A stretch of DNA of 64,000 nucleotides, taken from Dysidea avara (taxonomy: Eukaryota > Porifera > Demospongiae > Dictyoceratida > Dysideidae). Positions 3,140 through 57,987 of this stretch are shown in pieces. The notes beneath the pieces were generated by a model. It had not been told where the DNA came from. It was given only the letters and a program-made list of their open reading frames with translations, and ran no database searches. Each line of letters begins with the position of its first letter. Position 1 is the first letter of the stretch. Made by a program: the position numbers and the translations under genes. The DNA lies in NCBI RefSeq assembly GCF_963678975.1, contig NC_089273.1, positions 22,152,356 to 22,216,355 of the forward strand, read 5' to 3'.

Positions 3140-4599
3140 GATGAACAGCGTCTACTACACTTTCAGTGTTTATTAAAAAATTTGGCGAATCCGCTAATTT
3201 CGCCAAGATTTTCCGCTATACAGTATATAAACAAATTTTGTAGCAGCTTCATTTTAGGTCATACTGAAGGTACTTCTTGGTCTTAGTTTCATGTAACCAA
3301 TACTGCCAAGGTACAAGGTATTGTGTGTGTTCAATACATCTGAAACATTCAGTTTTGTCTGTAGTTTTTAATATTATTATTATGTATACCAGTAGTCAAC
3401 AAATTTACAACACAACTATAGCTTATCTCTGGTGCACCAATTTGATAGCTATAAAGCTGTACATTAAGTGCATGTAAAATATTAGCTATAAATCTGCGGT
3501 ACAACTCCTTAGCTACCTTGCATGTACATTGTACTTTTGGGTGGAAGTGACTGGTAGAGTTGCTGCCTCAACCACGTGCATGCTGTTTTGCCATCTGTAA
3601 AGTGCTAAATGCATGCAACTATTTTAGTGCATGGCCTTCTGCAAAGGTAACCTTAGGGTCCTGTTCAATTGTGCTATTTTGGGATTTTTCCAATAGAAAG
3701 AGGCAGAGAGGAGACAATTACTTATAAGTTATAACTCCACTAATCCTACATCAAGACACACGGTAGTGTGTCGTGCGGCCCAAGAAGCCGGCGCGTAACA
3801 CCCGTGAGTATATTGACAGGAAGAAAGAAAACGCAATTTTCGCACCTCCGTAGCTCTGTGCTTCCTTGATGAAACAAGACGATTTTTGCTGTGGACATTC
3901 CCTCCAACTGCAGCACTCCACATTCCAAATTTGAGCGAAATCGCTTCGCGCGTTCCCGAGATATGCGACTTCAAAAATTGGCTCAGTTTCTTCGTTTTTT
4001 TTTTCTTCTTATTTTTCTTTTTCTTGTCGCACACTTACAAAAACTGCTATAAAACGCGAACGCGTTATCCGGTTGCCTTGAAATTTGGCACACAGAAGGG
4101 GGATATAAAGGCGCATCTTGGTACCAACTTTGGCTGGAATACGATAAACAGGCAAAGAGTTATGAGCGATTATTCACGAAAAATAACACCAATATGTTGT
4201 CACGCCTACAGGGTAAACCGCGTATGGGAAGAAGCTGAAAATCGGTGGGTGAATAGGTTAACTATTGAACCTCAAACCTTTTGTGGTTTGAAAGAAATCG
4301 AGCTAAAAAACAGGAAGATACAACGAAAAAACCAACAGTGTGTAACAATTACGCAATCGAGATTAGCTAATAAAAAAACGACTACTTGCCACGCCTACCA
4401 GATAAACCGCTTGGGGTAATGCTTTGAAAATCGTTGTACAGATGGAATAATCATCTTAGAAAGGCTCATCAATGGTGTAGAAGAATCAGACTTAAAGCCA
4501 CGGAGTTATAACACGAAATCCAACTTGGTGCAGCAAGTGCGAGATCGAGATACTCTAATAGAGCAGTCATCCTAATAGAGCAGTCACTCTGAAGAGAAT

Positions 4600-7235: not shown

Positions 7236-7249
7236 CAAAGAAATCACCA

Positions 7250-7355
7250 CTGCCCAAATTTCAAGGCAATAGCTCTTTCCAATCTGAAGTTATCAATTGT
7301 CAAAGTTGGCAAATTGGATGTGTGTGGAAGGCCCCTTTTTGCAAATCCGGTCACA
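7250..7355 (-). mobile_element. fragment of the TGTGACCGG MITE family
   Basis: The stretch ending GCAAATCCGGTCACA matches one end of the complete element at 18003-18241, including the adjacent TTGGATGTGTGTGGAAG segment. The other end is missing. It sits at the 3' edge of the tandem array of the Helentron-like element. Confidence 0.65.
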
Positions 7356-7521
7356 TATGTATTATATATATAATTTGTACATTTACTGATAAAATATTTA
7401 AAGTATATCTACTTCATCTTTACTTCTTCCTGTAGTAAAGAAAAAAAAACATAGGTTAAAAAAGTCCCAAAGCTGGCCATAGGCCGGCTTTGGGGTATAC
7501 AAATGCAAAAAGAAATGAAAT

Positions 7522-7836
7522 CTAATCCAAAACAGCCAAGCTGTAAAAAAGTGTGCGGCCCTCAGAAAGGCTATGGTGAAAAAAGATGTGAAATCCAAGG
7601 TGGCGGCCAAGAAATGGCTGTGATGGTAGGTTAATGGTAAAAATTTTAATAACGACAATTCAGGTGAATTTTTGTGCCACTTCACAAAATTTACCTGAAT
7701 TGTCATTATTAAAATTTTTACCATTAACCTACCATCACAGCCATTTCTTGGCCGCCACCTTGGATTTCACATCTTTTTTCACCATAGCCTTTCTGAGGGC
7801 CGCACACTTTTTTACAGCTTGGCTGTTTTGGATTAG
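7522..7836. mobile_element. foldback element with ~150-bp near-perfect arms
   Basis: From CTAATCCAAAACAGCCAAGC at 7522 to its reverse complement ending at 7836, the sequence is a nearly perfect palindrome with a short asymmetric centre near 7670-7690. Open frames on opposite strands here give almost the same protein because of the symmetry, so they are not genes. It immediately follows the Helentron-like element, as if inserted at its 3' end. Confidence 0.85.
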
Positions 7837-8333
7837 ATAATATTATAATGGATTTTTAAAAACCAAGTGTTTATGAGATCTTCATTGCAGGGTAAACTGC
7901 ACACAAGACTATGCTACGTAAATAAAAACTATTCCCATTAATTTTAAAATTCTCCTGGAATTGCTACTGGGTCATTCCATGTCAAATCAACCAGGAATTT
8001 AGGGTCACCTCTCAGATTTTGACGAAACTTGGTGTGGTTGTAGTACCTGTGGTGCTTATCACTGGTGCACATTTTTAGCTCCATACACCACATAGTTTCT
8101 GATTTACAACCTCAAATATTTTGAATATTTCATGAAAAATTGGTTCATCTGTAGATACAAAATCAATCGTAACTTCACACTGATATTTTTAAACACAATT
8201 TTCAAATATGGAAGACTGTTGATTGACCTTTCCAGTGATCCCTAAATTATGGGATATCTACTTAATTATGGTTTTAAGGTACTTTATTGAAAACTTTAAT
8301 CCTTTATGTTTCAAAATTCTGCTTGAAACTCTT

Positions 8334-12281
<3,948 letters not shown>

Positions 12282-23207: not shown

Positions 23208-23957
23208 ATGCTACTTATCATTTTACTTGGGCTGATTTTGGGAGCTAAAGCACTTTCAGTTGAGGAGATGCTGGAATTTGGAGGGAAAAGATTTCAAGAG
23301 TTAAACCAAGGTATGCATTGTATTCAGTGCTAGACAATAAGGCATGCTGATGTATTTTCACAAACTACAGATAAATCACTGCCATTAAGAGACCATGATT
23401 ATTTGAGACTTCAGTTCTTAGGGGCAAAAGATGCCTGGCTTGGTTGTCCTGATAGTGATGATAAAGTGTGTGATCTACGACGATGTCCAAGTGTAAATCA
23501 AAACTATCGCTATCCTGGAAGATGCTGGGGAGAAGAGTTCCAAATCATTAGTGCAGGTGTCAACTTTATCCCAATCAAGTCTGGCCAACAAATTCGACTG
23601 CGTTATGCTAGTGAAAACAACACATGGATGGGATGTCCATTTAACAAACGCTGTGATAAAAGGACCTGCCCAGGAACAACTGAAGAAGGAAAAGAGTTTG
23701 TAATGGGTAAATCAGCTAGATTCGCTGGTGAAGCTTTTTACATCTATGCAAGAGGGAAAGCAAATGGTGCAGTAATCTACAATGGTGATGTAGTGATGCT
23801 TTACTATCCCCACGAAGGACTGTACGTGTCCATTCAAGGAGAGAATGAACTTGATAATACCAGTATCGACTTTTGTCCTGGAGCTGCTCCACCAGCCTAC
23901 CTTAGCTATGCCATGTGCTCTAAGAATTCATTCCGTGTGTATCAATACACTGACTAA
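23208..23957 (+). CDS. secreted cysteine-rich protein with three internal repeats, paralogue 1
   Basis: Two exons: 23208-23310 and 23371-23957, joined across a 60-bp GT-AG intron after one base of codon 35, give 229 aa. Residues 1-16 (MLLIILLGLILGAKAL) are a signal peptide. The mature part has three similar units: LQFLGAKDAWLGCP...RCPS...GRCWGEEFQI, then RLRYASENNTWMGCP...RTCPG...GEAFYIYARG, then VMLYYPHEGLYVSIQG...FCPG...MCSKNSFRVY. Threefold repetition of short beta-rich units suggests a beta-trefoil, as in many lectins and fascin-like proteins; this is inference and I do not recognise the exact family. Compared with its paralogue at 45841 it has lost one cysteine (SARFAGEAF instead of SNRCYGEIF), leaving nine. 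Secretion is likely; ligand and role are unknown. Confidence 0.85.
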
Positions 23958-28865: not shown

Positions 28866-29178
28866 GCTATGGTTATGTTCTACAAACATCATATCAACAA
28901 AATGATTTACAGTGAATGTACTTAGAAATACAGCTTAGTGTCTGCGGAGTTCTATAATAGCAACAGGTATAGGCCTGATTGCCATGAATATGGCTTTGCT
29001 ACTCAGATCAATTGCTACTCAGATCAATAGCTATTCAATATCTAAGTGAACCAAATTTGCATCAAAGTGGATGTCATCATTGCAATATGCATTTAAATAT
29101 AGGTCATAGACATGGAGAAGGTTTGTGTTTATAATATCTTTCGATTGTGGAAGTGTAGTGACAAATTTCTATCTTGCC

Positions 29179-30201
29179 ATGCCTAAACAACAAGGACGTA
29201 AAACAACCCGTCAAAAGGCTCGTAATAAAGGAAAACCTTACCCAAGATCTGAGCCAGGAGATGGTGAGGAAAACGGCACTGGGGAACCTTTACCCTGCCC
29301 CATCTGTGAAGAGGTCATAAAAGAATCAACGGACGACGCACCTGGAGACGAAGCTATCTTTTGTGAGGGTCAGTGTGAAGCGTGGTACCATCGAAGGTGT
29401 GCGGGAATTTCCAAGAGCGCTTATGAATCAGCAAGTGAGTCAGAGAATCCCTTTTATTGTATGTCATGCTTGCAAGTGCACTACAACAACGAAATTTCCC
29501 AATTAAAAGAGCAAATAGCCGCACTATCCTCAAAAATCCTTGGCCCTTCTGAAGGAGACAGCAGTCAACAGTCTACTCGAACCTCAGTATCTGGTCGTGG
29601 CAGCAACACGACTACCCAGTCCTCAAGTACAGCCCTGCCTAATGGTGTAACCAACTCATCTCACAAAATGGCCAGCACTGAGTCTACCTCAGCAAGAAAA
29701 TTCAATGTCGTACTTTTTGGCATAGCAGAATGCTCCAAAGGCACTAAAAAGTTTGAACAAGATAATTTAGATTTAAATAAAGCTACTGCCATCCTAACTG
29801 AGGTGGATAATTCGGTGCAGCCCTTTTCTATCAGAGACACTGTGAGGTTGGGAAAATACAATCCTACAGGTCGTCCTAGACCAGTCTTGGTTACGCTTAA
29901 CAGATCCTCAGATGTTGCTTCTTTGCTTTCCAAAAGGGCTCAAGTGAAGTCACCTTATGTTATAAAACCCGACCTTTCATGTGAAGCCAGAACTATTGAA
30001 TCCCACCTACTCAAAGCCAGATGGTCTCTGCTTCAAGCTAAGACTCCAAAATCTGACATTAAAATCCGAGGAGATAAACTGTATGTGAAGGGAAAGCTAT
30101 TTGGCCAAGCTGATACCACAGGCTTCACACCTGGCTCAGCATCTCCAAATGTATCCACTGTTGCTACCATGGATACTACCACTACAACTTCCTCTACTTG
30201 A
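29179..30201 (+). CDS. LINE ORF1 protein (PHD finger, coiled coil, RRM-like)
   Basis: The 340-aa protein starts at MPKQQGRKTTRQKARNKGK, chosen because the basic N-terminus is typical and the upstream extension is hydrophobic and unlike ORF1. Residues 40-97 form a PHD-type zinc finger: CPIC...CEGQC...WYHRRC...FYCMSC. A short coiled coil follows (about 104-120, NEISQLKEQIAALSSKI), then a Ser/Thr-rich linker and an RNA-recognition-like domain beginning at FNVVLFGI (about 175). ORF1 proteins of this layout bind the element RNA and act as chaperones in the ribonucleoprotein. It ends in a UGA that lies in the same frame as ORF2. Confidence 0.88.
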   Translation: MPKQQGRKTTRQKARNKGKPYPRSEPGDGEENGTGEPLPCPICEEVIKESTDDAPGDEAIFCEGQCEAWYHRRCAGISKSAYESASESENPFYCMSCLQVHYNNEISQLKEQIAALSSKILGPSEGDSSQQSTRTSVSGRGSNTTTQSSSTALPNGVTNSSHKMASTESTSARKFNVVLFGIAECSKGTKKFEQDNLDLNKATAILTEVDNSVQPFSIRDTVRLGKYNPTGRPRPVLVTLNRSSDVASLLSKRAQVKSPYVIKPDLSCEARTIESHLLKARWSLLQAKTPKSDIKIRGDKLYVKGKLFGQADTTGFTPGSASPNVSTVATMDTTTTTSST

Positions 30202-33045
30202 CTCCCTTCTGGGGTACAAATCTGCATGCAGAACTGTAGGAGCTTGACAAAAAACCTTCGATTTTTCCAAAATTTTATATATGCTTCAAATTTCAAAATA
30301 ATTGGCCTGTCTGAAACATGGTTATATAATGCTGTGCTTGATTCTGAAATTTTGCCACATGGGTATACAATTTATAGAACAGATAGAGGTTCCCGTGGTG
30401 GTGGGGTGATGATTGCTGTTGGTCATGAGTTTCCAAGTGAACAGATTCCAAGCCCTCCTAATCTGGAGGTTGTTACTGTTTCTATATCATTGGTGCCGGC
30501 TATAATCTGTTGTATGGTGTATATACCTCCAAATTCCACTGTGGAATATCATACTGAACTTATTAACTATTTACAATCCCTACCCGGTCATGTAATAATA
30601 TTTGGTGACTTTAATATGCCTGATATCGATTGGTCCACTCTTGCTGGAGGCTCAACAAGTTCTAACAATTTTTGTGAGTTCATATTCCAATCTAACCTTG
30701 AACAACTAGTGACTTGTCCAACTCATAAACATGGTAATCTGCTTGATCTAATTTTGACTGACAGTGCCGATAACATAGTTGACTTAACTGTTCACCCTCT
30801 GGAATACCAGTGCATTTCATCAGACCACCACTTGATTACCTTTGCCATCTGCTGTAAGAATATTATACCAAAGCCTGTCACTAAGGAGACATTTAATTAT
30901 GCCAAAGGTGACTATGCTGGCCTTAATGAATACCTATTGAATTGTGACTTTGGTGTAATTTGCAATTTAACAGATGTAGAAGAAATCTGGAACATATTAA
31001 AGAACCATATCCTTTCCGGTATGAACCTTTTTATTCCTAAAGTGAAAATAAGAGTACGTCAATTTCCTGTATGGTTCACTTCTCATCTACGTCATCTTAT
31101 TAAGTGTTTACGGACACTTCAGCGAAAATACAGTAAAGAACCTACTACTAACAATTTTCAAAAGTCCAGTGCTCTTTCCAAGATGCAAGCAAGGCGGCCA
31201 AATCTAACTACGAACGAAACCTTATCCAAAACTTTGCGACAAATAGAGATCCAAGAATATACAGATATATAAAACAATTTACTAAGTCTCATACTCTACC
31301 TCCACAGTTACATTTCAATTCTAATGTAGCCAACACTGATCATTATAAAGCTGAGCTTTTCAATCAGTACTTTTTCTCTGTTTTTACTAGAAGTACTTCC
31401 CTAGAACCAAATCCTAATGATTTAAGCATTCCAGCCAACTCCCTGGACACAATAAACCTAACAGAGTCTGATGTGTTTAATGCTCTTGTTAATCTTAATC
31501 CACACAAAGCAACTGGAATTGACTACATAGCTCCTAGCATTTTAAAAAATTGTGCCACCTCTCTTGTGGCACCACTGTTTCGCCTATTTACCACCAGCTT
31601 AAACACCAGTGTAATTCCAACTGAATGGAAGACACATAAGATTACTCCAATTTACAAAACTGGTGATAAGACATCTGTCAAAAATTACCGACCCATTTCC
31701 TTGTTATGCAATGTTTCAAAAGTGTTAGAAGACCTGATATATGTTAAGATGATTGGTACTGTGGCTAAGTGTATTACCCCTTGTCAATTTGGTTTCCAGA
31801 GTAACTCATCAACCCTACAACAATTACTTTTATATCACCACCAACTGATAACTTCCAAGGATGAAGTGGACGTTGTTCACATAGACTTTCGAAAGGCTTT
31901 TGACAGTGTGCCGCACAATTAACTATTGGTGAAACTCTGGAACATTGGGATCACTGGAACTCTTTGGAAGTGGTTTAAATCATACCTATGCAATAGGGTA
32001 CAATGTGTTTCTATCAACAACTGTTTGTCTAATTGCTTACCCGTATTGTCAGGTGTACCACAGGGGAGTATACTTGGCCCCTTACTCTTTCTAATTTACA
32101 TTAATGACCTTCCCTCTGCTATTCATTCATCCAATATGTTTGTCTTTGCTGATGATACAAAGTGCTTTATGAAAATAAAGTCTGAGTTGGACATCCATAG
32201 ATTTCAAGAAGATTTGTCATCAGTTTCTCACTGGAGTAATAACAATAACCTTGCCTTCAGTGTTCCAAAATTTATATTTTTACGTTATCACAACATATTT
32301 AATTCATTTTATACCATCAATGGAAATACCATTCCTTGCTCTGATAGCTGTAAAGATCTTGGTATCTATTTCTCTGATAGTTTATCATGGAGATTACACT
32401 ATCAAGACATTACTTCTAAAGCTTATAAATCTTTTGGATTACTTCGCCGCATATTTAAGGAAAGTTACTGTTTGGAGACTAGGAAGAATCTGTATGTTTC
32501 AATGATTAGATCTACTTTAATGTATTGTTCTTGCTTGTGGAAGCCATATTTACTATCTGATATTGAACTGTTAGAAAGAGTACAAAGGAGGGCAACCAAA
32601 TATATTCTTAATGACTACACCAGTAACTACAAAGAAAGGCTTTTGAGACTGAAACTTCTTCCACTGATGTATATTTACGATTTAGCTGACATCATTTTTT
32701 TTTATAAAATCAGTAAAATTTCAATCTGAAAAGTTCAACATATTAAACTTTGTAGAATTTATCTCTGGACCCACAAGATCAGCAGGTTACAAACTTAGAC
32801 ACATGATAGCATCTAAAAACAGCGTAATGAATTCCTACTTCTACCGTATACCCAGATTGTGGAACAGCTTACCATTAATTGACCTATCCCAAACCCTCCT
32901 AACTATCAAATTCAAACTCAAGAATTATTTTTGGAATCATTTTGTTAACAATTTTGACAGTAATAACCTATGTACTTTTTATTTCCGTTGCCCCTGTTCC
33001 AAATGTTTAAACATTCCAGCTCCTACAAACTATTTTATTCTTTAA
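30202..33045 (+). pseudogene. LINE ORF2 (endonuclease and reverse transcriptase), lightly damaged
   Basis: The frame continues directly from the ORF1 stop; the first AUG is at 30226. Endonuclease motifs are present in order: QNCRSL, LSETWL, GDFNMPDIDW and SDHHLI. After a frameshift near 31185 the coding resumes with ASKAAKSNYERNLIQNF and the RT motifs NPHKATGIDYI, KNYRPISLL, HIDFRKAFDSVPHN, SGVPQGSILGPLL and the catalytic FADD at about 32146. A stop at 31920 replaces the residue after PHN. A second frameshift in a T9 run near 32700 is followed by the C-terminal tail ending at 33045. It would copy RNA by target-primed reverse transcription if intact. Confidence 0.88.
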
Positions 33046-36781: not shown

Positions 36782-39700
36782 TTACAACAAATCTAGTCCA
36801 AAAATACAATTATTAAACTGTTCTAGTGACTCTGTATCGATGATGTGATTAGGGAGGTTATTCCATTGCTTGATAGTTCCTGGAAAGTAACTCTGTTGGT
36901 AAGCAAGTGTTCTAGTTGGAGGAATTATATATCTGTATTGGTGATGCAATCTAGTTGGATATGAAGTAGGCTTGAAATACTCAGGGAGCTGGATAGATGG
37001 CAAAGCGTGATGTAATACTCTATATAGTAAGTTCAAACGATCAATACATCTTCTGCTCTGTAGGCTCTTCCAATGCAGTTGATCCAACAGGTAAGTGACA
37101 CTACTCATTGGATTGTAATCCGATGCTACCCATCTTGCAGCACGACGTTGTACCTTCTCTAAAGTATTAATTAAGTATAGCTGGTGAGGGTCCCAGACAC
37201 AACTAGCATATTCCAGCAGAGGACGTATTGATGTTAAATAGGCTGTTATCTTAACTTCTTTGGAGCATTTACTTATATTACGTTTAAGAAAGTTGAGACT
37301 TTTAGTTGCTTTGCCGCAAAGATGATCGATGTGGTGGGACCAAGACATTGATTGGTGGAATATGACCCCTAGATATGGATGCTGACTCTTCAGTTCCAGA
37401 GCTTTATTGTCAATGCTGTAGGTGGTGAGCATGGGAGTTTTGCTTCTTGAACAACGTAGAAAAACACACTTTTCAACATTTAGTTTCATTTGCCAAGTTT
37501 TAGCCCAGTGGAAGACTTTATTTAGATCTTGTTGTAGGATACTATTGTCTTCTTCTGAATCAATAATTCTGTAAATAATACAGTCATCGGCAAAGAGACG
37601 AATCGAGGAGTTGATATTTGTAGATATGTCATTGATGTAAAGTAGGAACATTAATGGCCCAAGTACAGTGCCTTGTGGGACACCTGACTTTACTGGAACA
37701 AACCTGGAAGTTACATTATTTAGCACTACTCTTTGTTTGCGTTGTGTTAGCCAAGCCTTAATCCATTGATGAAGGTCTCCTTGTATTCCATAGTGTGATA
37801 GTTTCTGTAATAATCGTTTATGAGGAACTGAGTCAAAAGCTTTTGAGAAATCTAATAAAATTAGATCTATTTGTTTCTGTTGGTCCATTACCTTTAAGAT
37901 TTCCTCTGTTAGCATTACTAGTTGGGATTGACATGAGTACTTAGGCCTAAAACCGTGTTGGCAATTATTGAGGATATTATTTTGGTCTACATGATTCATA
38001 ATTGAGTGAAAAACAATATGTTCCATTACCTTGCAACAGGTAGAGGTAAGAGAAATTGGTCGATAATTATTAGCTGAGTTTCGGTTGCCTTTCTTATGTA
38101 CAGGGACAACATTTGCTGTTAGCCAGTCAGTTGGAAGATTGTTGGTGGTAAAAGATTGAGTAAAAATTACCTGGAGTATAGGTGCAATTTCAGCTCTGCA
38201 TAATTTCAGTATTTGCGTAGGAATCCCATCAGGACCTGGAGCCTTGCTAGTATCCAATTGTTGAAGTAAGTTTTCAATTCCTTCGGTTGAAAATATAATG
38301 TGGTCACAAATGGGATACGTAGGAATGTCTAGATTTGGAGTTTCGTTATCTTCGTCAGTAAAAAAAGTGTAGAACTGATCATTAAATGCATTAGCAATGT
38401 CAACAGAAGAAGTAAGCAGGGAGTCATTACTTTCTAAGGTGGTAACGTTTGGATGGTCTTTCTTTAAGTTCTTGATTAATGACCAAAATCGTTTTCTGTT
38501 GTTGCAGTGGGAGTCGTCAAATAGGTATTTACAGTAATTGTTATGAGCTTTATCAACTAAACTGTTAACTTCGTTCCTTAGCTTCCTGTACGCTTTCCAT
38601 TCGTTTTCATTTTGTGTAGCCTTAGCTTTGTTGTACAATCTACGCCTTTTAGATATCTTACGTTTAATTTCTCGATTTAGCCATGGAGCTTCTTTGCGAT
38701 TCTTGACCATTCTTGATGGAACGTGCCTGTTCGTCATTTCAAAAATCATATCTTTGAAATTATTCCAGTTATTTTCAACAGGTCTTTTGTAGGGATCACT
38801 CTGGAAGAACAGGTCTTTAAAAGCTCTAACATCTTCTAGCATTGATTCTGTGTTTGCTTTGTGAAAAAGGTAAGTTCTGTGCGGATTGTTATTAGGTGCA
38901 TCGCAAGTTGTATACAATGTAAAAGTAACTGCTTCATGGTCTGACATTCCAGGTACAACCTTGATGTTGTCAATAAGATATGGTGATGTTGTCAGGACTA
39001 AGTCCAATACGTTATCGTTTCTCGTAGGTTCAAGTATCTGTTGTTCCAAGCTGAAATCATTAATTACGTCAACAAACAGGTTATTCACTTCTGCTCCATA
39101 TGTTGGTCCAGGTTTAACATGACCGATTCCGTCACTCCATTCTATACTAGGAAAGTTAAAGTCCCCTGCTAGTATAATATTAGATTGGTTTCCTTTAGTT
39201 CTACTGATGTGTTGAAGGGCCTCTTTCAAACTTAGGATAGGGTTGCTTAGAGCATCAGGTGGCCGGTAAAATGAGCAAACAAGGCATGGCTCATTAGAGA
39301 CTGGGTAAATTTCAGCCCATATCATTTCAGCATTTTGTGATAAGTTGGGTTGTTCTGTGAATTTCAAGTTTTTTGTAAAGGCGAGAAATACCCCTCCTCC
39401 TCCAGAGGTTCGGTCTTTCCTTATCACAGAGAAATCGTTAGGAAATATTTCAGCAGTGGAGTAGGTTTCATCTAGGTGTGACTCACATCCTATTATAATA
39501 TGGGGTCGGTTTTCAAAAATTAAAGTTTGGAGCCTCCCTCTTTTGTTTAAGCTCCTTAGACTGCAGCAATTAAAACTAAGTACTCTCAGCTCAGATTTGT
39601 TGTTGTTTGTGCATGTGTAATTAGAATCATTTAGGGTGGGATTATCAGTGCTGGGGAGTGAGTTACTAGTAATTATGGTCTCCTCGGCACTATTGTGCCG
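36782..39700 (-). CDS. LINE ORF2: endonuclease-reverse transcriptase
   Basis: The frame is open from 39700 to the stop at 36782 (972 codons). The region before the endonuclease has no in-frame AUG; the first endonuclease motif is SFNCCSLRSLNKRG (about 39570), followed by GCESHLDE, GDFNFPSIEW and SDHEAV. The reverse transcriptase shows SKAPGPDGIPTQIL, NYRPISLTSTCCKVMEHI, LLDFSKAFDSVPH, SGVPQGTVLGPLMFLLYIND and the catalytic LFADDCIIYRI, then a conserved C-terminal tail (EKVQRRAARWV). It nicks target DNA and primes reverse transcription there. Because no AUG precedes the endonuclease, expression probably depends on recoding from ORF1 (see the signal at 39685-39706). Confidence 0.92.
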   Translation of the reverse strand, partial: RHNSAEETIITSNSLPSTDNPTLNDSNYTCTNNNKSELRVLSFNCCSLRSLNKRGRLQTLIFENRPHIIIGCESHLDETYSTAEIFPNDFSVIRKDRTSGGGGVFLAFTKNLKFTEQPNLSQNAEMIWAEIYPVSNEPCLVCSFYRPPDALSNPILSLKEALQHISRTKGNQSNIILAGDFNFPSIEWSDGIGHVKPGPTYGAEVNNLFVDVINDFSLEQQILEPTRNDNVLDLVLTTSPYLIDNIKVVPGMSDHEAVTFTLYTTCDAPNNNPHRTYLFHKANTESMLEDVRAFKDLFFQSDPYKRPVENNWNNFKDMIFEMTNRHVPSRMVKNRKEAPWLNREIKRKISKRRRLYNKAKATQNENEWKAYRKLRNEVNSLVDKAHNNYCKYLFDDSHCNNRKRFWSLIKNLKKDHPNVTTLESNDSLLTSSVDIANAFNDQFYTFFTDEDNETPNLDIPTYPICDHIIFSTEGIENLLQQLDTSKAPGPDGIPTQILKLCRAEIAPILQVIFTQSFTTNNLPTDWLTANVVPVHKKGNRNSANNYRPISLTSTCCKVMEHIVFHSIMNHVDQNNILNNCQHGFRPKYSCQSQLVMLTEEILKVMDQQKQIDLILLDFSKAFDSVPHKRLLQKLSHYGIQGDLHQWIKAWLTQRKQRVVLNNVTSRFVPVKSGVPQGTVLGPLMFLLYINDISTNINSSIRLFADDCIIYRIIDSEEDNSILQQDLNKVFHWAKTWQMKLNVEKCVFLRCSRSKTPMLTTYSIDNKALELKSQHPYLGVIFHQSMSWSHHIDHLCGKATKSLNFLKRNISKCSKEVKITAYLTSIRPLLEYASCVWDPHQLYLINTLEKVQRRAARWVASDYNPMSSVTYLLDQLHWKSLQSRRCIDRLNLLYRVLHHALPSIQLPEYFKPTSYPTRLHHQYRYIIPPTRTLAYQQSYFPGTIKQWNNLPNHIIDTESLEQFNNCIFGLDLL

Positions 39701-40578
39701 TTTTTTATTATGTAATTCTTACCATCTTTGTTCATCTCATTTAGTTGGTTTCTTAACATTTTGTTCTTCTTTTGTTCAAGTGGCGTGCAGTCAGCAGATA
39801 CGTAAACTGGCTTTTCTTGGTTTAAATTATTTCCATTCTTAAGTTTAGACTTGTTTCTCAAAATTGCAACTTTATCTTGGAGGTTGGAAACGGTGACTTT
39901 GAGTAAGCGGGCTCTACCACCTTTCTTTCCGATTCTGATAGCATTAGTAACTAAGGTTTCCACTCCTAAACTTTCGGTAAACAATGATGTAGCTGTTTTA
40001 ATATCATCTCTCTTTCTGGTTTGTGGGTCTTCTTCCTTTGATTCTTCTATATTGTGCAAAATTAGATTAAGCTGTCTTTTTTCTTTTTCTTTCTGCTCAA
40101 AAATGATAGAAGAAGTCAAGTGGGCAACAGATTCTTCATCACTGGGGTCAGGGGTTATCTTTGACAAGGGTTTGTTGTAATTCTCTAATTGTTCATTTAT
40201 TCCCTCCACAATTCCAGTGAGTTTTTCTTCTACTGCTTCAAGCCTTGCATTGACATTCTGCTGCTCCTGTTGGAGTGCGGATGTACCAGAATCTACTTTC
40301 AGTGCGAAAGCAACTTTTGTATAGCATAACGTACAGAAAAACATAATTTTCTCACTGCTACCACTCAAAATGTTATACTCGTTTTGAGTTAGACCTGCAC
40401 ATATTCTGTGTTCCCACTTACAGCACCACTGACATTGTACAGCATCTTTCTTAGCTTCTTTTTTACAAGTAACACATTTCTCGACTTGTGGGGCTTGTTT
40501 AGTTTTCTTACTATCTCTTTTGGGAGGTGAGGTGTCTTCTGGTAGCTTGCGTTTGATGATTGAGGTTTGGCTAGCCAT
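39673..40578 (-). CDS. LINE ORF1 protein (PHD-like finger, coiled coil, RRM-like)
   Basis: 301 aa from MASQTSIIKRKLPEDT. The basic N-terminus is followed by a PHD-like zinc finger at residues 35-85 (CVTC...CQWC...WEHRIC...FFCTLC), a coiled coil at about 98-165 (rich in Q, E, K) and an RNA-recognition-like domain from RQLNLILHNIEES (about 168). A C-terminal domain ends NGTIVPRRP. It is expected to coat the element RNA and escort it. The last codons overlap the ORF2 frame, and the ATA AAA AAC codons near the end form a slippery heptamer. Confidence 0.9.
   Translation of the reverse strand: MASQTSIIKRKLPEDTSPPKRDSKKTKQAPQVEKCVTCKKEAKKDAVQCQWCCKWEHRICAGLTQNEYNILSGSSEKIMFFCTLCYTKVAFALKVDSGTSALQQEQQNVNARLEAVEEKLTGIVEGINEQLENYNKPLSKITPDPSDEESVAHLTSSIIFEQKEKEKRQLNLILHNIEESKEEDPQTRKRDDIKTATSLFTESLGVETLVTNAIRIGKKGGRARLLKVTVSNLQDKVAILRNKSKLKNGNNLNQEKPVYVSADCTPLEQKKNKMLRNQLNEMNKDGKNYIIKNGTIVPRRP
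39685..39706 (-). promoter_or_regulatory. candidate -1 ribosomal frameshift signal joining ORF1 to ORF2
   Basis: On the minus strand, in the ORF1 frame, the codons ATA AAA AAC give the heptamer A AAA AAC (39706-39700), a classic X XXY YYZ slippery site. It is followed at once by the perfect hairpin CGGCAC-AATA-GTGCCG (39700-39685). A -1 slip enters the ORF2 frame, which is then open to 36782. The stem starts closer to the heptamer than the usual 5-9 nt spacer, which weakens the case. Confidence 0.5.
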
Positions 40579-40956
40579 CTCAGCGATGTTGTTCTAATTA
40601 ATGCCCACTATGACCAAAAACAAACAGAGACAAACGCATGTACTGCAATAACAAACAACTGGCCTTTGGTGGTACCGTTAAAATCGCCACGGTACAACAG
40701 CTGGAGAGCTTAGGAGTCGATTTGACGAGTTGAGAATGTAGTATAGTAGAGTTGTACCCGATTACCAAAAACTGGTGCAACCAATCAGAACGCACCACGT
40801 TTAATCAGCGCATTTTTGTTTATGTTACGTCAAAAGAATGAATCAAATGCCCAACTCGGTGATACCATAGATATTATCTATGGTGATACTAAACATAGCA
40901 TACCCTTACTCTATGCGAAGGGGCGGGCGCCGCCAGACTACTTTGAGGTGTTGTCT

Positions 40957-45840: not shown

Positions 45841-46579
45841 ATGCTACCTATCATTTTACTTGGGCTGATTTTGGGAGCTGAAGCGCTTTCAGTTGAGGAG
45901 ATGTTGGAACTTGGAGGGAAAAGGTTTCAAGAGTTAAAACAAGGTATGAATTGGGTGCAATACTAGTTAAAAACAAACATACTGTTATATTTCACAAAAC
46001 ACAGATAAATCACTGCCGTTAAGAGACCATGATTACCTGAGACTTCAGTTTTTAGGGGCTAGAAACGCCTGGCTTGGATGTCCTGATAGTAATAAAGTGT
46101 GTGATCTACGTCGATGTCCAAGTGGAAATGAAAACTATCGCTATCCTGGAAGGTGTTGGGGAGAAGAGTTCCAAATAATTGGTGAAGGTACCAACTTGAC
46201 TCCAATCAAGTCTGGCCAGAAAATTCGACTGCGTTATCCCCGTGAACACAACACATGGATGGGATGTCCACAGAACAAGCGTTGCGACAAAAGAACCTGC
46301 CCAGGAACAACCATTGCAGCAAAAAACTTTAAAAGTAATCGATGCTATGGTGAAATATTTGTCATCTACGCAAGAGGGAAAGCAAATGGTGCAGTAGTCA
46401 ACAATGGTGATGTAGTGATGCTTTACTATCCTCATGGAGGACTGTATGTGTCCATTCAGGGAGAGAATGATAATGATGATACAAGTCTCAATTTTTGCCC
46501 TGGAGCTGCTCCGCCAGCCTACCTTAGCTATGCTATGTGTTCTAAAAATTCTTACCGTGTTTATCGATACACTAACTGA
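45841..46579 (+). CDS. secreted cysteine-rich protein with three internal repeats, paralogue 2
   Basis: Exons 45841-45943 and 46005-46579 with a 61-bp GT-AG intron at the same position and phase as its paralogue give 225 aa. The signal peptide is MLPIILLGLILGAEALS. The repeats are LQFLGARNAWLGCP...GRCWGEEFQI, RLRYPREHNTWMGCP...SNRCYGEIFVI and VMLYYPHGGLYVSIQG...YRVYRYTN. Ten cysteines, an even number, would allow full pairing. The middle repeat retains the RCYGE cysteine that paralogue 1 has lost, which suggests this is closer to the ancestral state. A beta-trefoil fold is inferred from the threefold pattern. Function unknown; possibilities include lectin-like recognition. Confidence 0.87.
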
Positions 46580-50148: not shown

Positions 50149-53100
50149 TCAAACAGTGTTGTATCCATAGTCATCAATAGTTGCAGCATCCATTATAGAT
50201 TTGAATTTGTAATATTCATCTCTCTTACATACACCAAATGGCAAGAAGATTTCTCTAGAACATGTACTGATTTTAATCTGCTCCAAGTCATTACTAAAAT
50301 TCACCATAATCTTCTGATCTTGTATACATGTAGTTCCAGTAATACAAATCATAAAGCTTTGAAGATCTATAAATATAAAAAACACAGTACTTTAAGCATT
50401 TTATTAATGTCACCTACGTATGTGGCATTAAATGTATTCAGTAGCAAAACAACAGGAAAGGGTCTATGTGGTACAATGTATATAGGACCTGGCAATTTGT
50501 GTGTTTAAAAATAGTAAACACCATACACAAATAGGCACCTTTTGGCTTTTTTTGGCTTTTGCCTTTTGGCTTACATTTTAAAGTTGCTACTGTATACAAC
50601 TTGACAAACCTTCTTGTGAAAGACTAGAAATGTACTGCTTCAGAAATTCCATTGCAATGGGATCTTCATTGCCACTACCCACACACAACGCACTGACAAC
50701 TTCATTAGCACTGATTTCTCCAGTGAATATAAACATTGGAGCAAATGCATTAGGGAAGCTCTGTATTAAGTCCAGCATTTTAACTTTTCTTAACCCAACT
50801 TTGAACTGGTCAAGTAGTATCTTTATACTGAAGAGTGCCTCATGTACCTTCAGCAACTGTATAACCTGGTCCTTGTTATCCAGCTAGAAAACATTAGTTT
50901 GTAGCAGTGATCAGCCACACACATACACTAATACTATTCATGTATTACATTATATATACCTGAGGTGACAAAGCTATTATATTATGAGATGACAAAGCTA
51001 TTACTATGTTATGTTGTTTGACGGTTTATTCCTCTTAATTAAACCCTTTGAGACCAAATTATTTTTCAAGTATGGAGGAACGCATAACTTTTTGCGTTCT
51101 AAGTAAACCACCAGTCTTCTGTGAAATGAAGACGAATTACACTACGCAGTACTTGTGATGTAACAGGCAATGTTGTCTCTACTAAATGTCCTACGTATAT
51201 TCTTGAGGCACGTAACCTTTTGTATACCAATTGAATTGTCATTATGTGCTGAGTCTAATGGTATTAACTTTAATGGGATGAGAAGCATGGTTGAGATATG
51301 GCTGATCAAAGTAATGGATGTACGTAGGGTAACGGCATTCTAGCTATAATGGAAAAGCTACTTTTTTAATTAAAGATTTTTTTCGAACAAAGGAATGCTT
51401 CATGTCATTATGTAGAAATTTCATGGTAAGTATTGTGGTGTTAGCAAATTGTTTCTACTGTGCAGAGATACAAAGTAATACGGTATATACAAGCCTATGT
51501 GGTAGCGTCCAATATATTGGACTTTGGTAGCCAAAGGCTAAGTTTTAACATTTACATATGTTAGAAATTGCACATTATTTGTGACCGGATCTGCGAAAAC
51601 CCGACAAAATAGCACAAGCCTAAATTTCCAGTATAAAGTATTGAAAACTATTGGTGAAATATTTGTGTATTATCGAAAAAAATTTGTAAATTTTTTGAAT
51701 GCCTTTTTCGTAGTAAAGGAAGGGACTAACAATAACAATGTGGATATCATCTTATTCACCTACGCAAGAGGAGTTAGAAAATGTTTGTTTCATTGTAGTA
51801 GACCCAAGGATTCACAAGTTATGAGCGTTTGTTCACGTCCCATCGAAGCGATCGTACTTGATGAATTTTTCTTCATACGAATTTCACCTTTGTATCCAGT
51901 GAAGAAAGGTGATAAAAGGACAAACGTACCCAGTAAATAATTTCCGTATTCATGGCAAACACAATGGTGAAAAGTTCAGCTCAGTACGTCCATCCTTTCG
52001 TAAGTTACAACCGTTTTAGTAACCACCTGTAATTTATTTTCCCTATACTTGCTGTACAAATCGATTTTTCTGTTGTTGCTACTTTGTAGGACTGTAACTC
52101 CACAAGTTATTGGCATATGAGGCTGAAACTTTGCTAGAGAACACACTTTGCTAGAGAACACACTTGGCTAAGCAGATTATAAATATTTAATAAACAGGAA
52201 TTTGAAAACTGCACTATTGTGTCGGATTTTCGCAGATCCGGTCACATTAGAAAGTTGTATAGCCTTCATATCAGAAAGCAGAGATGCTACATACACATGT
52301 ACCCCAACATAACGTGTATATAATATAAAATTGTGTGATGCAGACTATGATGTATTAGTAACATACATAGCTAGTTGACACTACACATGTACTGTAGTTA
52401 CCATTCATTGCTCACCTTTACTTGCATGTTTACTTTAGCAGCTTCCAACAAGTCTTGTGCTCCTTCAGTATTGCATGCTGCAGCAACTTCATCAACAGTG
52501 CTAGCCTCATTGAGCTACAGTACACAATACACATGCACATGTACTACAGTTTTTAAAATCATAATGTGTTGGATTGAATATGAATATCTAACATAGAGAT
52601 GCTTCAAGATCTATGCAAAAATGGCTTATCTTAATAAAAGTGCATAAATGTGCCACAATAAACAAGTGTGTTATTATCAGTCCAATTAGATTATGGTCAT
52701 AAAAAGTATTTGCTCTGTAATGCGTAGCTATCTCAGTTTTAATAACCATCCATTTCCTTGAGACTCACTCATATGAAGCATGATTTAAATACAGTATCTG
52801 ACAAGCCCCATAACTTTGGTCTATTACTGACTCAAGCATTTAAAATGTGTATTTATTGATAACGGATTCAGCTACCTGTATATCATTAAACAGAGGCAAG
52901 TATGGAAAGCTATATGTGTACATTAATTTTGTAAACACAAGTACTGTACACTTACGTAGATCTACTATAGTGAGTTGCAGTTAAATAATATAAAAATCTA
53001 AACTTACGTTTGTGGTAAGAAAATTACAAGCAGCCCCAATATCATCATCAGTATAGTGCAGCATAGCTGTATTTTTGCCTGCAGCAATGTACCAGTAGCA

Positions 53101-56100
53101 GAGGGGACTTAAATAAGGAAATCCAATGCCTTCTTGAATAATGCTATGTCCAACTATGCAACCCAGTACTTTAAAAATCTCTGTGTCTGTAGCAGATGCA
53201 CTGTAGTATGGTCGAAGGCGATATTTTTTGCCTTGAAAGAGGTGACAGTGTTGATTTGCAGAAAGCTGTTTTAAAGTTCTGGTGTACATTTGACGCCGTA
53301 CACCACCAGCATCAATGGTTGGAACATTTTGTAAGTGAATTACAATGTTAAAATTTGAAAAATCAACATCAGGATCTTTGTAAAAATCAATAAGATCAGA
53401 GCATTGTGTAGTTTGATTCATTTTAATGATCTTGACAGGATAATTCTGGGACTTGGAAAACAGTCTTATCAATATTTTTTGCAAACTGGGACCTGACGTA
53501 AGAAACTCCACAGCATCATTTACATCTTGATCAGTTAGTTCTAAAGTTGATATTATTTGTTTTCTTGAGAATTTGCTGTTACACACTTCCCATACTTGTC
53601 CGACTAATCTTTCATCACAAGTGTGATATGAATGATCCATGTTGTCACTGTCTATAACAATTTCTTCAGGTTGTTGGTCTTGATGATCATCTTGAGAGGC
53701 ACTATCAGGTAGTGTACCAGTGTTAGCATCAACAGCCTCACTAAAACATCAAGTTGACAATAATGATATTAAGTTCATATACAGTGAATAACCTCAATAA
53801 GTAAAAAAAAAACATGGCAATATCTGAATGTTATGAGATTAGCTATGCATTCTTTACTGAAACAATTAAGGTGTAAAGGGCAAAGGTTAAAAAAAGGAGG
53901 CAGCCATGAAATGGTCACAGAAATGAATAAATTTAATAGCTTGTCTTTGCATAATATTGCAAGTCCCAAAGCCAGCAATACCCAGTTTTCCTGTCTTTTC
54001 TTAGACTACAGGATTAACGTAATCAAAATGAGTAAAGGATAATTATTAAACAGTATTGCTACAAAGGTTAATATCATCTACAGTGTACACATGTATGTAA
54101 AATTACATAGGTCAAACAACATTTGACACACAGTATAATCACTTACTTTATGGGTTCGTTTCTTACAGTATAATTATTATCTGCAGCAGAGAAAACTGAA
54201 TCATCAAGAATTCTATATCGATGATTTCTAGAATTCCGTTTCAAGAGTTTCTATTAGAAATTAAAATACATTAAATCATGGTAGATTGTATGCCACTATA
54301 ACTGATATATTACTATATGCAGTAAACTGGCTGTATATGAGCACTAACGTGTATAGCTATTATTGCATACTGGTTGGGTAAATGTATACACTGTAGCCTA
54401 CTGTTTCCATATTTATTACATCAAATAATTTTATGAGACTGTACAGTAAATAAAATACTACAAGTGACATAAAAATTTTCATAACTGAGTTGCTTTTCCA
54501 CGAATAAATTTTTCGATTTTCATACACACTCACATAACTGTACCGTACACACTTTAGGTACAAAAACCTTGCTGCAGCTGTATGGCCAATAAAGTGTACA
54601 ACTCGATTAACTATTGTTATGTACAGTATGCTAAAGCACTGCTTTGCTTGGGGTAAGTAGAATTCTAGGAAATAAAAATGGGATGGGAATGGAAAAAACC
54701 AATGGAAAATGCATCATAATGCCAATGTAAAGACAGCACAATGCTCTTTGCAGCATTGTTGGTCCTTCTGCTAAAATGATCAAAATACTCTATTAGAGCA
54801 GTCAATCAAGAATGTTTTGTTTTTGTTAACTATCCCACCAGGGAGTATGTAACAGCTGCAGTATTTATCAAGCTGAGGTGGCTTCAATAAGCAGATTAAG
54901 GACAATATAAACAGTCATGTGCTTCAGCCTGACAAGCAACTGCTGCGTATTTCCCATCATTATAACTTCTTATATGGAAGCAACATACAAAGCTTGTAAC
55001 AGGCACTGTCAGTTATCGAGAAGCTAGAATACTCTTCACGTTAGACAGTCAAATCTTTAAAATGATTTTGATTCAAAGAGTAACTACGTAACTTTCAGTG
55101 TTGATGACTTAGCTAGTCCAGCTAGACTCCATAATTTCACAGGTTTTCAATGCAGGTGCCTGTTGAGATAGTTCATCAGTCAATTTTGACTGCTCTGATA
55201 GAGTGTTTCAATGCAAGTGACTGCTCTACTAGAGTATTTTGAATGTTTTAGCGGAAGGATCCAACCATGCTACAAAGAAGCATTATTCAGTCTATATAAT
55301 TGACATGATGACCTTTGTCAAGCATTTTCCATTGGAAGTTCCCTTTCCCATTCAAGTTCTCATCTTGTTCCTATTTTCCTAGAAATATAGTTATCCCTTT
55401 ACTTGTGCTATGTGAAAATTTAAACAGGTGTCAATGATAATATAGTACTCAGGTACACACTCTGTGCTATATCAGCATCTTGGCACTGCATCTTGTACTA
55501 ATTTTCTACGTAGAACTTGTACTTACGTAACTGCAAAATATGTGTACACAAGAGTAGTTGATAAGTGCATTGTGCAAATACTGCATATGGCATATAAAAC
55601 AATACACAGATTCTTATCTCGATCATCACCAGTGTTAGAGTCTACAGTATAGTAAGTCACAACAACTCCTTACAACACTTACTCTGCTAATGCAAATGTA
55701 GACAATCACCAATGCAACCGAAGCTAAACATAAGCATAGCACTCCAACACCAATTCCAATATATTGTAGTAGACCAAGTTTTTGTTTACCACATCCATTA
55801 TCTATAAAATTAATATAGAATGGTAAACACACGCACAATTAAACCGGTTATGGTATAATTAATGGTAATGTTTCCACGTTACAAGCAATTGATAATTACA
55901 TAGGGTCTAAATAGCTAGACTTTAACCTATAGCTTACACTACCCCGGTATATGTAAATTTGTATCCTTCCAGGCCTTGCATTAGTGACTTCATTTTTGCT
56001 GTGGTGACACAGTAAGTACCTTTGTGCTACATAATAGTTATACTGGCACAATGTGGAGTGAAGGCCCGGGCTATAGGACACGAGTGAAATGAGGGCGCTA

Positions 56101-57987
56101 CTAAGGGCCTGAGGGTTTATAAATTTCATAGACTCCACATTGTGCCCGTAAAACTGCTTTAGACTCTATTTCACATTACACTCAAATTACTTACTGCAAT
56201 TCACTTTATTTTCGTGCAAATAATTTCTGTGATAAAAATTTTTGTGCAAAAATATTTTCATATAATTTACGTAAATGACTGCTCTATTAGAGTAATTTGA
56301 TCTTGTATAAAAATTTTTGTGCAAGAAATTTTCGTATAAATTTTGCATACGAAAATTATTTTACAACAAAAAAAAAACCTAATTACGGTACCTCATCCAT
56401 GGCTGTTTCTGCTGTAGGCTCAGCAAAAGTGGTTGGTTGTCTTATGATAATACTATTGTCATGGCAACTATGCATGCTCACGTGACAAAATAAGCTCCCT
56501 CGTTACATCACTGCATGTGAAAAGTGGATACTGATTGGATAAACCTAGTTTTGAGCATATGTTATATTGTGCCTCAAGGCGTGGAATATATTAGACAACA
56601 AGGTGGAGTAAATGAGATTTATTACCCACCTAAAACAGCCTAAATAGAGTCTAATAAAATGTAATTACATTCTGTAAATCCCTGTCATCTGGAGGGGCAT
56701 TGCCAACAAAAAATTGCTATAAACAGATACATGTTCTGTGCTTTAGTTGCAACAGTTTTCAGTATTGCAACAGTATTGCAGCAAGATTAGTCGCCACATT
56801 TTCTGGTATGGAGCTTGTGTCAAGGAAAAGTACTAATGGGCCATATTAGTGCCAGATGACTAACCCCTCCTCCTACTCACTTCATTATTTCTAAAGTTTA
56901 ATAATTTCTCCACTGCAAACAATTATTATTATAAATTGCTTGCTTCAGTGGCATATACCAAACACATATACAAATGACCCATCCAGTTCCTACCTGTAAT
57001 ATTCAAAATTGCAAAAGACGTAAAGTTATCAGGAGCAAGATCATCTGTACAAGTGTACACAGTTCCATTATCCTGTGGATGTGCATGATTAATCTGTAAT
57101 CCTACTATTTGTGATGGACGGTTAGAGTTCTTCAGCAGGACATAGTTTGGTGATGAATGAGTAATGATGGTGCCATTCACTTTCCATGCTGCATCTCGTA
57201 CAAGTACTGTGCCACCATCAAGTGTAAATGTAACTGTGCAATGAAGTTGGACACTAGTGTATGCACACACATGACCCGGACCAGTGGCTGGCTTTTCAAA
57301 ACCTGAAAATGTATACTGCACATAACTATACATACAAGCATATACTGTATATATGTAACTGTTAAAATGGGATAAATTGTCTTGTGTTGCAGTACATGTC
57401 TAAGGTAATAGCTTCCTTTTTATATGTAATATCAGAACAGCTTTGTCACATTGTGTTCATATATAAACTGTACATGGCTGCTTTAGCATGGCTATAATGT
57501 AATATCATTTGGTGCCAACCATTATTCCAATATTAATTTTTAGCTACAAGGCTGTACATATAAGTACCTAGCTATTACACAAACCGTTATTTGAAAACTG
57601 AGATTATATAACCTTCCCATAACCCAAGACTCCAGCTTGCTTTGCATACTATTTCTGTCTTGCAATACAATGTACGTATCTAGCTACTGAAGCAAAGGCA
57701 AACTGTGATTGTGTCCTTGAGCCCCAACTTGCTTTCATAACCTCTGAAAATAGAATGTAAATATACATCACATCAGAAATAAATTAGTTACGTAACTAAA
57801 GCACATTGTGTATAATTGTATAGAATTTACTTTATGGTGCTACATGAGTTTTCTAGATAATTATGTTACACAACATTACATATAAGTACAGTTAGTATAG
57901 TTACTTACTAAAAATCCCTGAACCTCTACTGCTATCTGCTACTTGCCAATTATTGCAAAGTAGACTGAACAACACCAAAGAAAACAT
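50149..57987 (-). CDS. Ig-domain transmembrane HECT-type E3 ubiquitin ligase (predicted receptor ligase)
   Basis: Eight coding exons: 57987-57909, 57302-56994, 55801-55683, 54250-54147, 53740-53008, 52514-52416, 50883-50610 and 50366-50149. All introns are GT-AG and phases match throughout, giving 644 aa. Residues 1-17 are a signal peptide (MFSLVLFSLLCNN). Residues 27-129 form an Ig-like domain: VQLHC, AAWKVNG, DNGTVYTC; several N-X-T sites. Residues 141-166 are a transmembrane helix (YIGIGVGVLCLCLASVALVI) followed by basic KLLKRNSRNHRYR. A UBA-like segment lies at 246-287 (FSRKQIISTLELTDQDVNDA). HECT spans about 289-644: IDAGGVRRQMY (346-356), FPYLSPLCYWYIAAG, catalytic C608 in STCSREIFLP, aromatic Y641 four from the end. 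HECT enzymes take ubiquitin from E2 onto this cysteine. A membrane-anchored cytosolic ligase with an extracellular Ig domain is inferred. A separate HECT gene starting at Met238 is the main alternative. Confidence 0.78.
51580..52246. mobile_element. TGTGACCGG-family element, 667 bp, in an intron of the HECT receptor gene
   Basis: The termini TGTGACCGGATCTGCGAAAA then CCCGAC and the mirror GTCGGATTTTCGCAGATCCG then GTCACA. It is longer than other members and has a 119-codon open frame (51581-51940) with no recognisable domain. It lies in the 1.5-kb intron between the exons at 52416-52514 and 50610-50883. Confidence 0.8.
52600..53007. other. intron sequence of the HECT receptor gene
   Basis: Between the donor at 53007 (GTAAGTTTAG on the minus strand) and the acceptor before 52514. 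No repeat or RNA gene recognised. Confidence 0.6.
54655..55385. mobile_element. inverted-repeat element in an intron of the HECT receptor gene
   Basis: 54655-54805 and 55190-55385 are diverged reverse complements. Shared pieces include TCCAATGGAAAATGC-type, TTGTTGGTCCTTCTGCTAAAA versus its GTTGGATCCTTCCGCTAAAA counterpart, and AAATACTCT(A/T)(T/G)TAGAGCAGTCA at the inner edge. The inner part has extra tandem copies of the dispersed motif (55190-55215 and 55223-55245). It lies in the intron between the transmembrane exon and the juxtamembrane exon. Confidence 0.6.
56041..56150. repeat. short inverted repeat in an intron
   Basis: TACTGGCACAATGTGGAGT at 56041 and ACTCCACATTGTGCCCGTA ending at 56150 are inverted copies with one mismatch. 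The rest of the intron (55802-56993) contains one dispersed-motif copy at 56277-56306 and no recognised exon. Confidence 0.6.

What the first reader, a model, noticed from the sequence alone, without database searches (positions are those of the whole stretch)
50149..57987. Predicted receptor-type HECT ubiquitin ligase: signal peptide, Ig, TM, UBA-like, HECT
Seen: eight exons with GT-AG borders and fully compatible phases (1,1,0,2,0,0,1) give one 644-aa reading frame. An Ig exon with symmetrical phase-1 borders is followed by a TM exon, then a basic juxtamembrane exon lacking any in-frame ATG, then the UBA-like/HECT exons. Known: HECT E3s form a thioester on a C-lobe cysteine (here C608 in STCSREIFLP); transmembrane E3s that I know of are mostly RING types. 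Inference: this would be a single-pass receptor that ubiquitinates substrates directly on ligand binding. I know of no established Ig-TM-HECT receptor.
Basis: partly seen in the sequence, partly recalled or inferred. Interest (0 to 1): 0.92.

Follow-up and report, generated by a model that had tools for sequence, protein, structure and literature searches.

The report
Cell-surface Ig receptor with HECT ligase
An animal genome, probably a sponge's, appears to encode a cell-surface receptor whose inner half is itself a ubiquitin-attaching enzyme of the HECT type, a combination for which I found no published description in the open papers searched.

Summary
HECT is clear (6.4e-10); the Ig exon is weak alone but firm through its family. 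One gene or two was the open question, and paralogues in the same assembly favour one. The two nearest HECT relatives lie downstream, on the same strand, of the two best foreign Ig exons. One relative (C2b) keeps the Met-less juxtamembrane exon with the same phases. The other (C3) keeps the TM exon's phases and the HECT exon's phase-2 acceptor. The three HECT-linked Ig domains group together, with moderate support. Cys608 and a -4 aromatic are present; C3 has lost the Cys. Gaps: C2b's TM exon not found (50 kb unseen), C3's juxtamembrane exon weak, no transcripts, no structure. Ligand-triggered activity is inference. Verdict: probably a real receptor-type HECT E3, a new architecture of known domains.

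The parts
57909..57987 (-). Exon 1: start Met and predicted signal peptide (MFSLVLFSLLC...), exit phase 1
   Evidence: hydrophobic start found by a screen, which also gave another candidate start at 59111; no convincing counterpart within 1.5 kb upstream of the 7 foreign Ig exons screened
56994..57302 (-). Exon 2: single Ig domain, phase 1-1, four N-glycosylation sequons (N69, N105, N119, N127)
55683..55801 (-). Exon 3: transmembrane helix, phase 1 in, 0 out
   Evidence: C3 paralogue exon with the same phases
54147..54250 (-). Exon 4: basic juxtamembrane segment without Met, phase 0 in, 2 out
   Evidence: homologous exon in the C2b paralogue
53008..53740 (-). Exon 5: acidic linker, UBA/CUE-like helices, start of the HECT N-lobe, phase 2 in
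52416..52514 (-). Exon 6: HECT N-lobe
50610..50883 (-). Exon 7: HECT N-lobe end and hinge region
50149..50366 (-). Exon 8: HECT C-lobe with presumed catalytic Cys608 (STCSREIFLP) and -4 aromatic Tyr641; stop codon

Best explanation
One gene encodes a type I single-pass membrane protein: signal peptide, one Ig domain with glycosylation sites outside, a TM helix, a strongly basic juxtamembrane segment, an acidic linker, UBA/CUE-like helices and a C-terminal HECT domain inside. Shown by sequence: intact frame and splice sites, HECT and Ig identity, same-order paralogues, conserved junction phases and E4. Inferred: the Ig domain binds a ligand or a partner on the same or a neighbouring cell. Clustering, or capture of a partner, brings the HECT next to its substrate; Cys608 takes ubiquitin from an E2 as a thioester and passes it to the partner's cytosolic tail or to the receptor itself, driving internalisation or signalling. 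I put about 0.8 on the architecture and about 0.4 on this mechanism.
For: Intact 8-exon frame. HECT 6.4e-10, profiles matching TOM1, E6AP, AREL1 and HUWE1. Ig family. Two paralogues with Ig and HECT exons in the same order and strand: C2b, Ig 22898268 to E8 22716594, about 182 kb; C3, Ig 32760038 to E8 32800606. Of 1115 phase 0-to-2 exon candidates in 639 kb (both strands counted, some loci overlapping) the best non-self match to window E4 is the C2b exon just 5' of its E5: 2 of 5000 shuffles reach its score; NG86 dN 0.32, dS 1.31 over 17 codons, with 60-nt flanks only 37% and 28% identical. C3 TM exon phase 1-0; E5 acceptor phase 2 in window, C2b and C3, with no Met before the UBA/CUE-like helices in C3. 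HECT-linked Ig domains group at 83/83. Post-TM stretch SRKLLKRNSRNHRYR fits the positive-inside rule (recalled). Cys in 3 of 4 and -4 aromatic in 4 of 4 aligned genes; the '-4 phenylalanine' is described in a passage of PMC3738095.
Against: No RNA data. The TM exon of C2b was not found in the 37 kb seen of its 87-kb Ig-to-E5 interval: hydrophobic frames there lack fitting splice borders; 50 kb unseen. The C3 E4 is only a weak candidate: 287 of 5000 shuffles reach its score against window E4, 14 of 5000 against C2b E4. The window and C3 TM exons resemble each other little (59 of 5000 shuffles). No convincing signal exon upstream of paralogue Ig exons. C2b E5 has a Met near its start and the window's E5 has Met238, so a separate HECT start is not excluded there. 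C3 lacks the Cys. The Pfam and PDB alignments stop before the Cys region, so the Cys rests on motif reading. An AATAAA lies in the TM-to-E4 intron at 54417. No fork of the Ig tree reaches the tool's mark for strong support.
Confidence: 0.65

Rival explanations
1. Two neighbouring genes: an Ig-TM receptor with a short tail and a cytosolic HECT ligase, which were duplicated together as a block.
For: A seemingly unfused neighbour exists: the Ig-TM gene at C2:22222378 is followed on the same strand by an unrelated ORF (recalled as PARP6/8-like) with an early Met of its own. Reading through donor 55682 meets a stop after 15 codons. AATAAA in intron 3. Met in E5 of the window (residue 238, at 53640) and of C2b.
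Against: E4 is open, under amino-acid constraint, Met-less and phase 0-in in two paralogues, so it needs an upstream coding exon with phase 0 out, which the TM exon provides in the window and in C3. C3 E5 has no Met before its helices. Order and strand are kept across 182-kb and 40-kb loci.
Confidence: 0.15
2. One gene, but the HECT acts mainly on the receptor itself or as a binding scaffold: a self-removing or pseudo-enzyme receptor rather than a signalling E3.
For: The C3 relative has lost the Cys (VSPHFREIYFP) and changed N-lobe residues (DVRSLRHQ for DAGGVRRQ). Instability through self-ubiquitination is called a common feature of transmembrane E3s in a passage of PMC4021871. A passage of PMC11354881 says HECT E3s have a conserved His two residues from the Cys; the window has Ser606 and Arg610 there.
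Against: The window, C2b and C15 keep the TC motif and the -4 aromatic.
Confidence: 0.15
3. Alternative splicing yields both a short Ig-TM form (ending after exon 3) and the full Ig-TM-HECT form; the short one is the main product and the full one a minor by-product.
For: Stop 15 codons after donor 55682 and a polyA-like AATAAA at 54417.
Against: HECT exons are open and similar in paralogues, which a by-product would not explain.
Confidence: 0.1

Closest known systems
HECT E3 ligases (E6AP, HUWE1/TOM1, AREL1; G2E3-like by recall)
   Same: HECT N-lobe by Pfam and PDB profiles; TC motif and -4 aromatic. Likeness to G2E3-like proteins is recalled, from no call.
   Different: Known HECT E3s that I recall have cytosolic or nuclear N-terminal modules, not a signal peptide, Ig and TM.
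Transmembrane RING E3s (GRAIL/RNF128, RNF43/ZNRF3, the PA-TM-RING family)
   Same: Single-pass, ectodomain outside, E3 inside (recalled); GRAIL is reported to capture and ubiquitinate transmembrane proteins across the membrane (a title in the reference list of PMC4021871). This is what it may work like.
   Different: RING, with no E3 thioester, and a PA ectodomain rather than Ig. Not a member.
Receptor tyrosine kinases and Ig-TIR receptors of sponges
   Same: Ig ectodomain, one TM, signalling domain inside (recalled; two PDB matches of the Ig profile are titled 'Cell recognition molecule, long form' and 'Receptor tyrosine kinase (Fragment)'; their sponge origin is recalled).
   Different: The inner domain is a HECT rather than a kinase or TIR.

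Membership tests
HECT E3 ubiquitin ligase | HECT domain over the curated score | tested here: met
   PF00632 39.6 bits against a cut-off of 23.9; 4 of 4 members of A3 match HECT at E<=1
HECT E3 ubiquitin ligase | Catalytic cysteine in the C-lobe TC motif | tested here: met
   Cys608 in STCSREIFLP, aligned with C2b and C15, lost in C3; read by motif, since Pfam and PDB alignments stop before it
HECT E3 ubiquitin ligase | Aromatic residue four from the C-terminus (-4 Phe) | tested here: met
   Tyr641 in the window; Phe, Tyr and Phe in C2b, C3 and C15; role in a passage of PMC3738095. Tyr in place of Phe is a deviation
HECT E3 ubiquitin ligase | E2 binding and ubiquitin thioester formation | not testable with these tools
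   needs biochemistry
Immunoglobulin superfamily | Ig fold with the Cys pair and Trp | tested here: met
   Ig_2 2.4e-4 for the exon alone (below Pfam's cut-off), 16 of 16 aligned exons match at E<=1; PDB profile matches; Cys, Trp and YxC positions present. No structure could be predicted
Single-pass type I receptor | Cleaved signal peptide and TM with cytosolic C-terminus | tested here: inconclusive
   hydrophobic start and a TM stretch of mean hydropathy 2.76 with a basic inner flank; no dedicated predictor, no localisation
UBA or CUE domain | UBA or CUE fold that binds ubiquitin | tested here: inconclusive
   EDD UBA 0.049, nothing credible in the PDB, CUE 6e-4 in relative L047, none in the other relatives scanned
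PA-TM-RING E3 | PA and RING domains | tested here: not met
   Only HECT and a weak EDD match at E<=10 in Pfam

The most novel reading that the evidence does not exclude
A family of at least three receptor HECT ligases, one a receptor pseudo-ligase without the catalytic Cys, lets a cell turn contact or ligand recognition by an Ig domain straight into ubiquitin transfer, as receptor kinases do with phosphate, perhaps in self/non-self or microbe recognition.
Probability: 0.3. Interest if true: 0.85.

Novelty: new variant of a known kind. Interest (0 to 1): 0.62.

Why it matters
If true, a receptor would carry a thioester-forming ubiquitin ligase as its own enzymatic tail, a signalling layout parallel to receptor kinases. 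The transmembrane E3s that I recall are RING types; the review consulted covers only those (PMC4021871, start of abstract and passages). It would make direct, ligand-controlled HECT activity testable, and the Cys-less relative offers a natural counterpart.

Tried and rejected
Chance assembly of unrelated exons: rejected, because order, strand and phases recur at two other loci. UBA as a firm label: rejected. C15 as a fourth receptor: left open; its HECT exon has a phase-1 acceptor, and no match to the Ig or TM and no convincing TM frame was seen in the 4 kb left before the contig end. C5:36711098: in 1.5 kb upstream one open frame passes hydropathy 2.0, an IY repeat. The 12 Ig places on C1: no HECT match listed lies near them (the one on C1 is at 17.1 Mb); their downstream DNA beyond about 1.5 kb was not read. 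Searching TM exons by protein: no paralogue found. NCBIfam: 0 families. Papers: multi-term searches, of which I saw listings only (7 of 7 papers, 15 of 57, 12 of 12, 15 of 122, 20 of 91, 15 of 18, 8 of 64, 8 of 20), and a phrase search for transmembrane, membrane-anchored, membrane-spanning or receptor-type HECT or HECT receptor (0 papers), showed no Ig-TM-HECT description; passages were read of PMC8195603, PMC5560861, PMC4021871, PMC11354881 and PMC3738095. The 2013 HECT survey (PMC3673628) is not held, so prior notice there is possible.
Full report
Observation. On the minus strand eight exons between 57987 and 50149 join through seven GT-AG introns with exit phases 1,1,0,2,0,0,1 into 1935 nt, 644 aa. 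The assembly is unnamed (G000, 550.8 Mb, 108 contigs; the window is C2:22152356-22216355).

Domains. Pfam gives HECT at 6.4e-10, over its cut-off. A profile of nine HECT-type exons finds TOM1 (2.8e-6) and E6AP (1e-4) in the PDB, and a profile of four genes' HECT exons finds AREL1 (1.4e-4), TOM1 and HUWE1. The Ig exon is weak alone (2.4e-4, under Pfam's cut-off) but belongs to a family of phase 1-1 exons of which 16 of 16 aligned match Ig_2 at E<=1 and whose profile matches titin and contactin at 1-2e-10. It carries four N-glycosylation sequons. The TM exon is followed by SRKLLKRNSRNHRYR, which by the positive-inside rule (recalled) puts the HECT in the cytosol. The UBA-like label is unproven; a soluble relative scores CUE at 6e-4, just under its cut-off.

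One gene or two. One search (Ig to E5 start as query) gave 22 matches, 5 of them the window's own exons and 17 Ig exons elsewhere: five close ones on C2 and C3, twelve on C1. One search (HECT as query) gave 39 matches, 4 of them the window's own. The best two foreign HECT loci sit downstream, on the same strand, of the best two foreign Ig exons. C2b on the minus strand: Ig 22898268, E5 22810710, E6 22760643 (found at 9e-4), E7 22739770, E8 22716594. C3 on the plus strand: Ig 32760038, E5 32778154, E7 32788350, E8 32800346; no E6 was found. The other three close Ig loci (C2:23033398, 22222378, 23271123) have no HECT match downstream on their strand, and none lies near the twelve on C1. These searches score only the best candidates, so absences are not firm. 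Searches with the C2b and C3 HECT proteins and with another Ig exon gave the same sets.

Junction exons. In C2b a scan for phase 0-to-2 exons with a basic start found KCLKWKFRNNRYTTLTDCDDSSVVFTPPT ending AA|gtaagtga, just 5' of E5; the window has KLLKRNSRNHRYRILDDSVF... ending AA|gtaagtga (the same scan gives one candidate in the window's interval, two in C3's). It is the best non-self match to window E4 among 1115 candidates in 639 kb, both strands counted, some loci overlapping, with ten loci of the window's own gene left out (score 39, next independent one 35). Two of 5000 shuffles reach the score. Over 17 aligned codons 6 are identical, 3 synonymous and 8 changed (NG86 dN 0.32, dS 1.31), while 60-nt flanks are only 37% and 28% identical. 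Neither E4 has a Met, so if coding it must be spliced from an upstream exon of phase 0 out. The TM exon of the window and that of C3 (GSGCKKSDELQ...ILLFK|gtaagc) both enter in phase 1 and leave in phase 0; so does the TM exon candidate of the C2:22222378 gene. As a control, the phase 1-to-0 TM screen gives 6 candidates on the whole minus strand and 2 on the plus strand of the window, 5 of the 6 in the Ig-to-E4 interval, 3 of those being the model's exon with alternative donors. E5 enters in phase 2 in the window, C2b and C3, and in C3 it has no Met before the HECT-linked helices. In a tree of 11 Ig exons (window, the five close ones, five of the twelve on C1) the three HECT-linked Ig domains form one group (83/83) apart from the others, though no fork reaches the tool's mark for strong support.

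Gaps and results against. The C2b TM exon was not found in the five stretches seen (about 37 kb of 87 kb); 50 kb were not available. The C3 E4 candidate is weak and C3 may have an extra linker exon of phase 2-2 (my reading). Window and C3 TM exons are barely alike beyond hydrophobicity (59 of 5000 shuffles). C2b E5 has a Met near its start, and the window's E5 has Met238. No signal-peptide exon was found within 1.5 kb upstream of six of seven foreign Ig exons screened, and only a repeat-like candidate at the seventh. C15 has a HECT gene of this type with a phase-1 E5 acceptor and no Ig or TM recognised in the 4 kb left before the contig end. A seemingly unfused Ig-TM gene followed by an unrelated gene exists at C2:22222378, so mere neighbourhood is not proof. 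C2b spans 182 kb against 8 kb in the window, which is odd and unexplained.

Catalysis. Cys608 sits in STCSREIFLP. C2b and C15 keep TC; C3 has VSPHFREIYFP instead. A residue four from the end is aromatic in 4 of 4 (Y, F, Y, F in window, C2b, C3, C15), matching the -4 phenylalanine described in a passage of PMC3738095. The Pfam and PDB alignments stop before this segment, so the assignment rests on the motif. A His two residues from the Cys, described in a passage of PMC11354881, is absent.

Mechanism. Shown: frame, domains, paralogy, phases. Inferred: surface display, ligand or partner binding by the Ig domain, clustering or capture, thioester on Cys608, transfer to the partner's tail or to itself. 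The nearest working analogue is GRAIL, a transmembrane E3 reported to capture and ubiquitinate transmembrane proteins across the membrane (reference title in PMC4021871). In membership terms it is a HECT E3 by the tested features and not a PA-TM-RING protein.

Novelty. No paper in the searched open library holds the phrases transmembrane, membrane-anchored, membrane-spanning or receptor-type HECT, or HECT receptor; the parts of the listings seen show no Ig-TM-HECT protein. The 2013 HECT survey is not held. I rate it a new variant of a known kind: known domains in a receptor layout that I did not find described.

Noticed in passing
G000 C3:32800300-32800650 (L074): The C3 HECT paralogue has VSPHFREIYFP where the TC motif with the catalytic Cys should be: a possible receptor pseudo-ligase.
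   Followed up: partly
L043, L044, L045, L059; L046, L047, L051; L048, L049, L053, L057, L061; L052, L055, L063: Several groups of near-identical HECT-bearing copies scattered over chromosomes, some with stops: HECT genes seem to be multiplied, perhaps with mobile elements.
   Followed up: no
G000 C1, 25.4-43.3 Mb (L019-L030): A large group of Ig exons, those read being phase 1-1, related to the window's Ig, possibly a diversified receptor cluster.
   Followed up: no
L034, C2:22222378 onward: A neighbouring Ig exon with a TM exon candidate, followed by an ORF that I recall as PARP6/8-like; Pfam finds nothing in that ORF.
   Followed up: partly
window 9297-11036: A perfect run of 580 GTA units (1740 bases) without one interruption, open in five frames.
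   Followed up: no
window 29110-33045 (+) and 36782-40593 (-): ORFs that look like LINE reverse transcriptases by eye (not scanned), each with an upstream ORF matching a PHD finger (3e-6, over cut-off; and 1.9e-4, under it).
   Followed up: no
window 23334-23957 (+) and 45971-46579 (+): Two similar ORFs of about 200 aa, rich in Cys, with no Pfam family over cut-off.
   Followed up: no
L032, about 4000-8500: A retrotransposon-like stretch (recalled as Bel/Pao-like) lies between the TM and HECT exons of the C3 paralogue.
   Followed up: no
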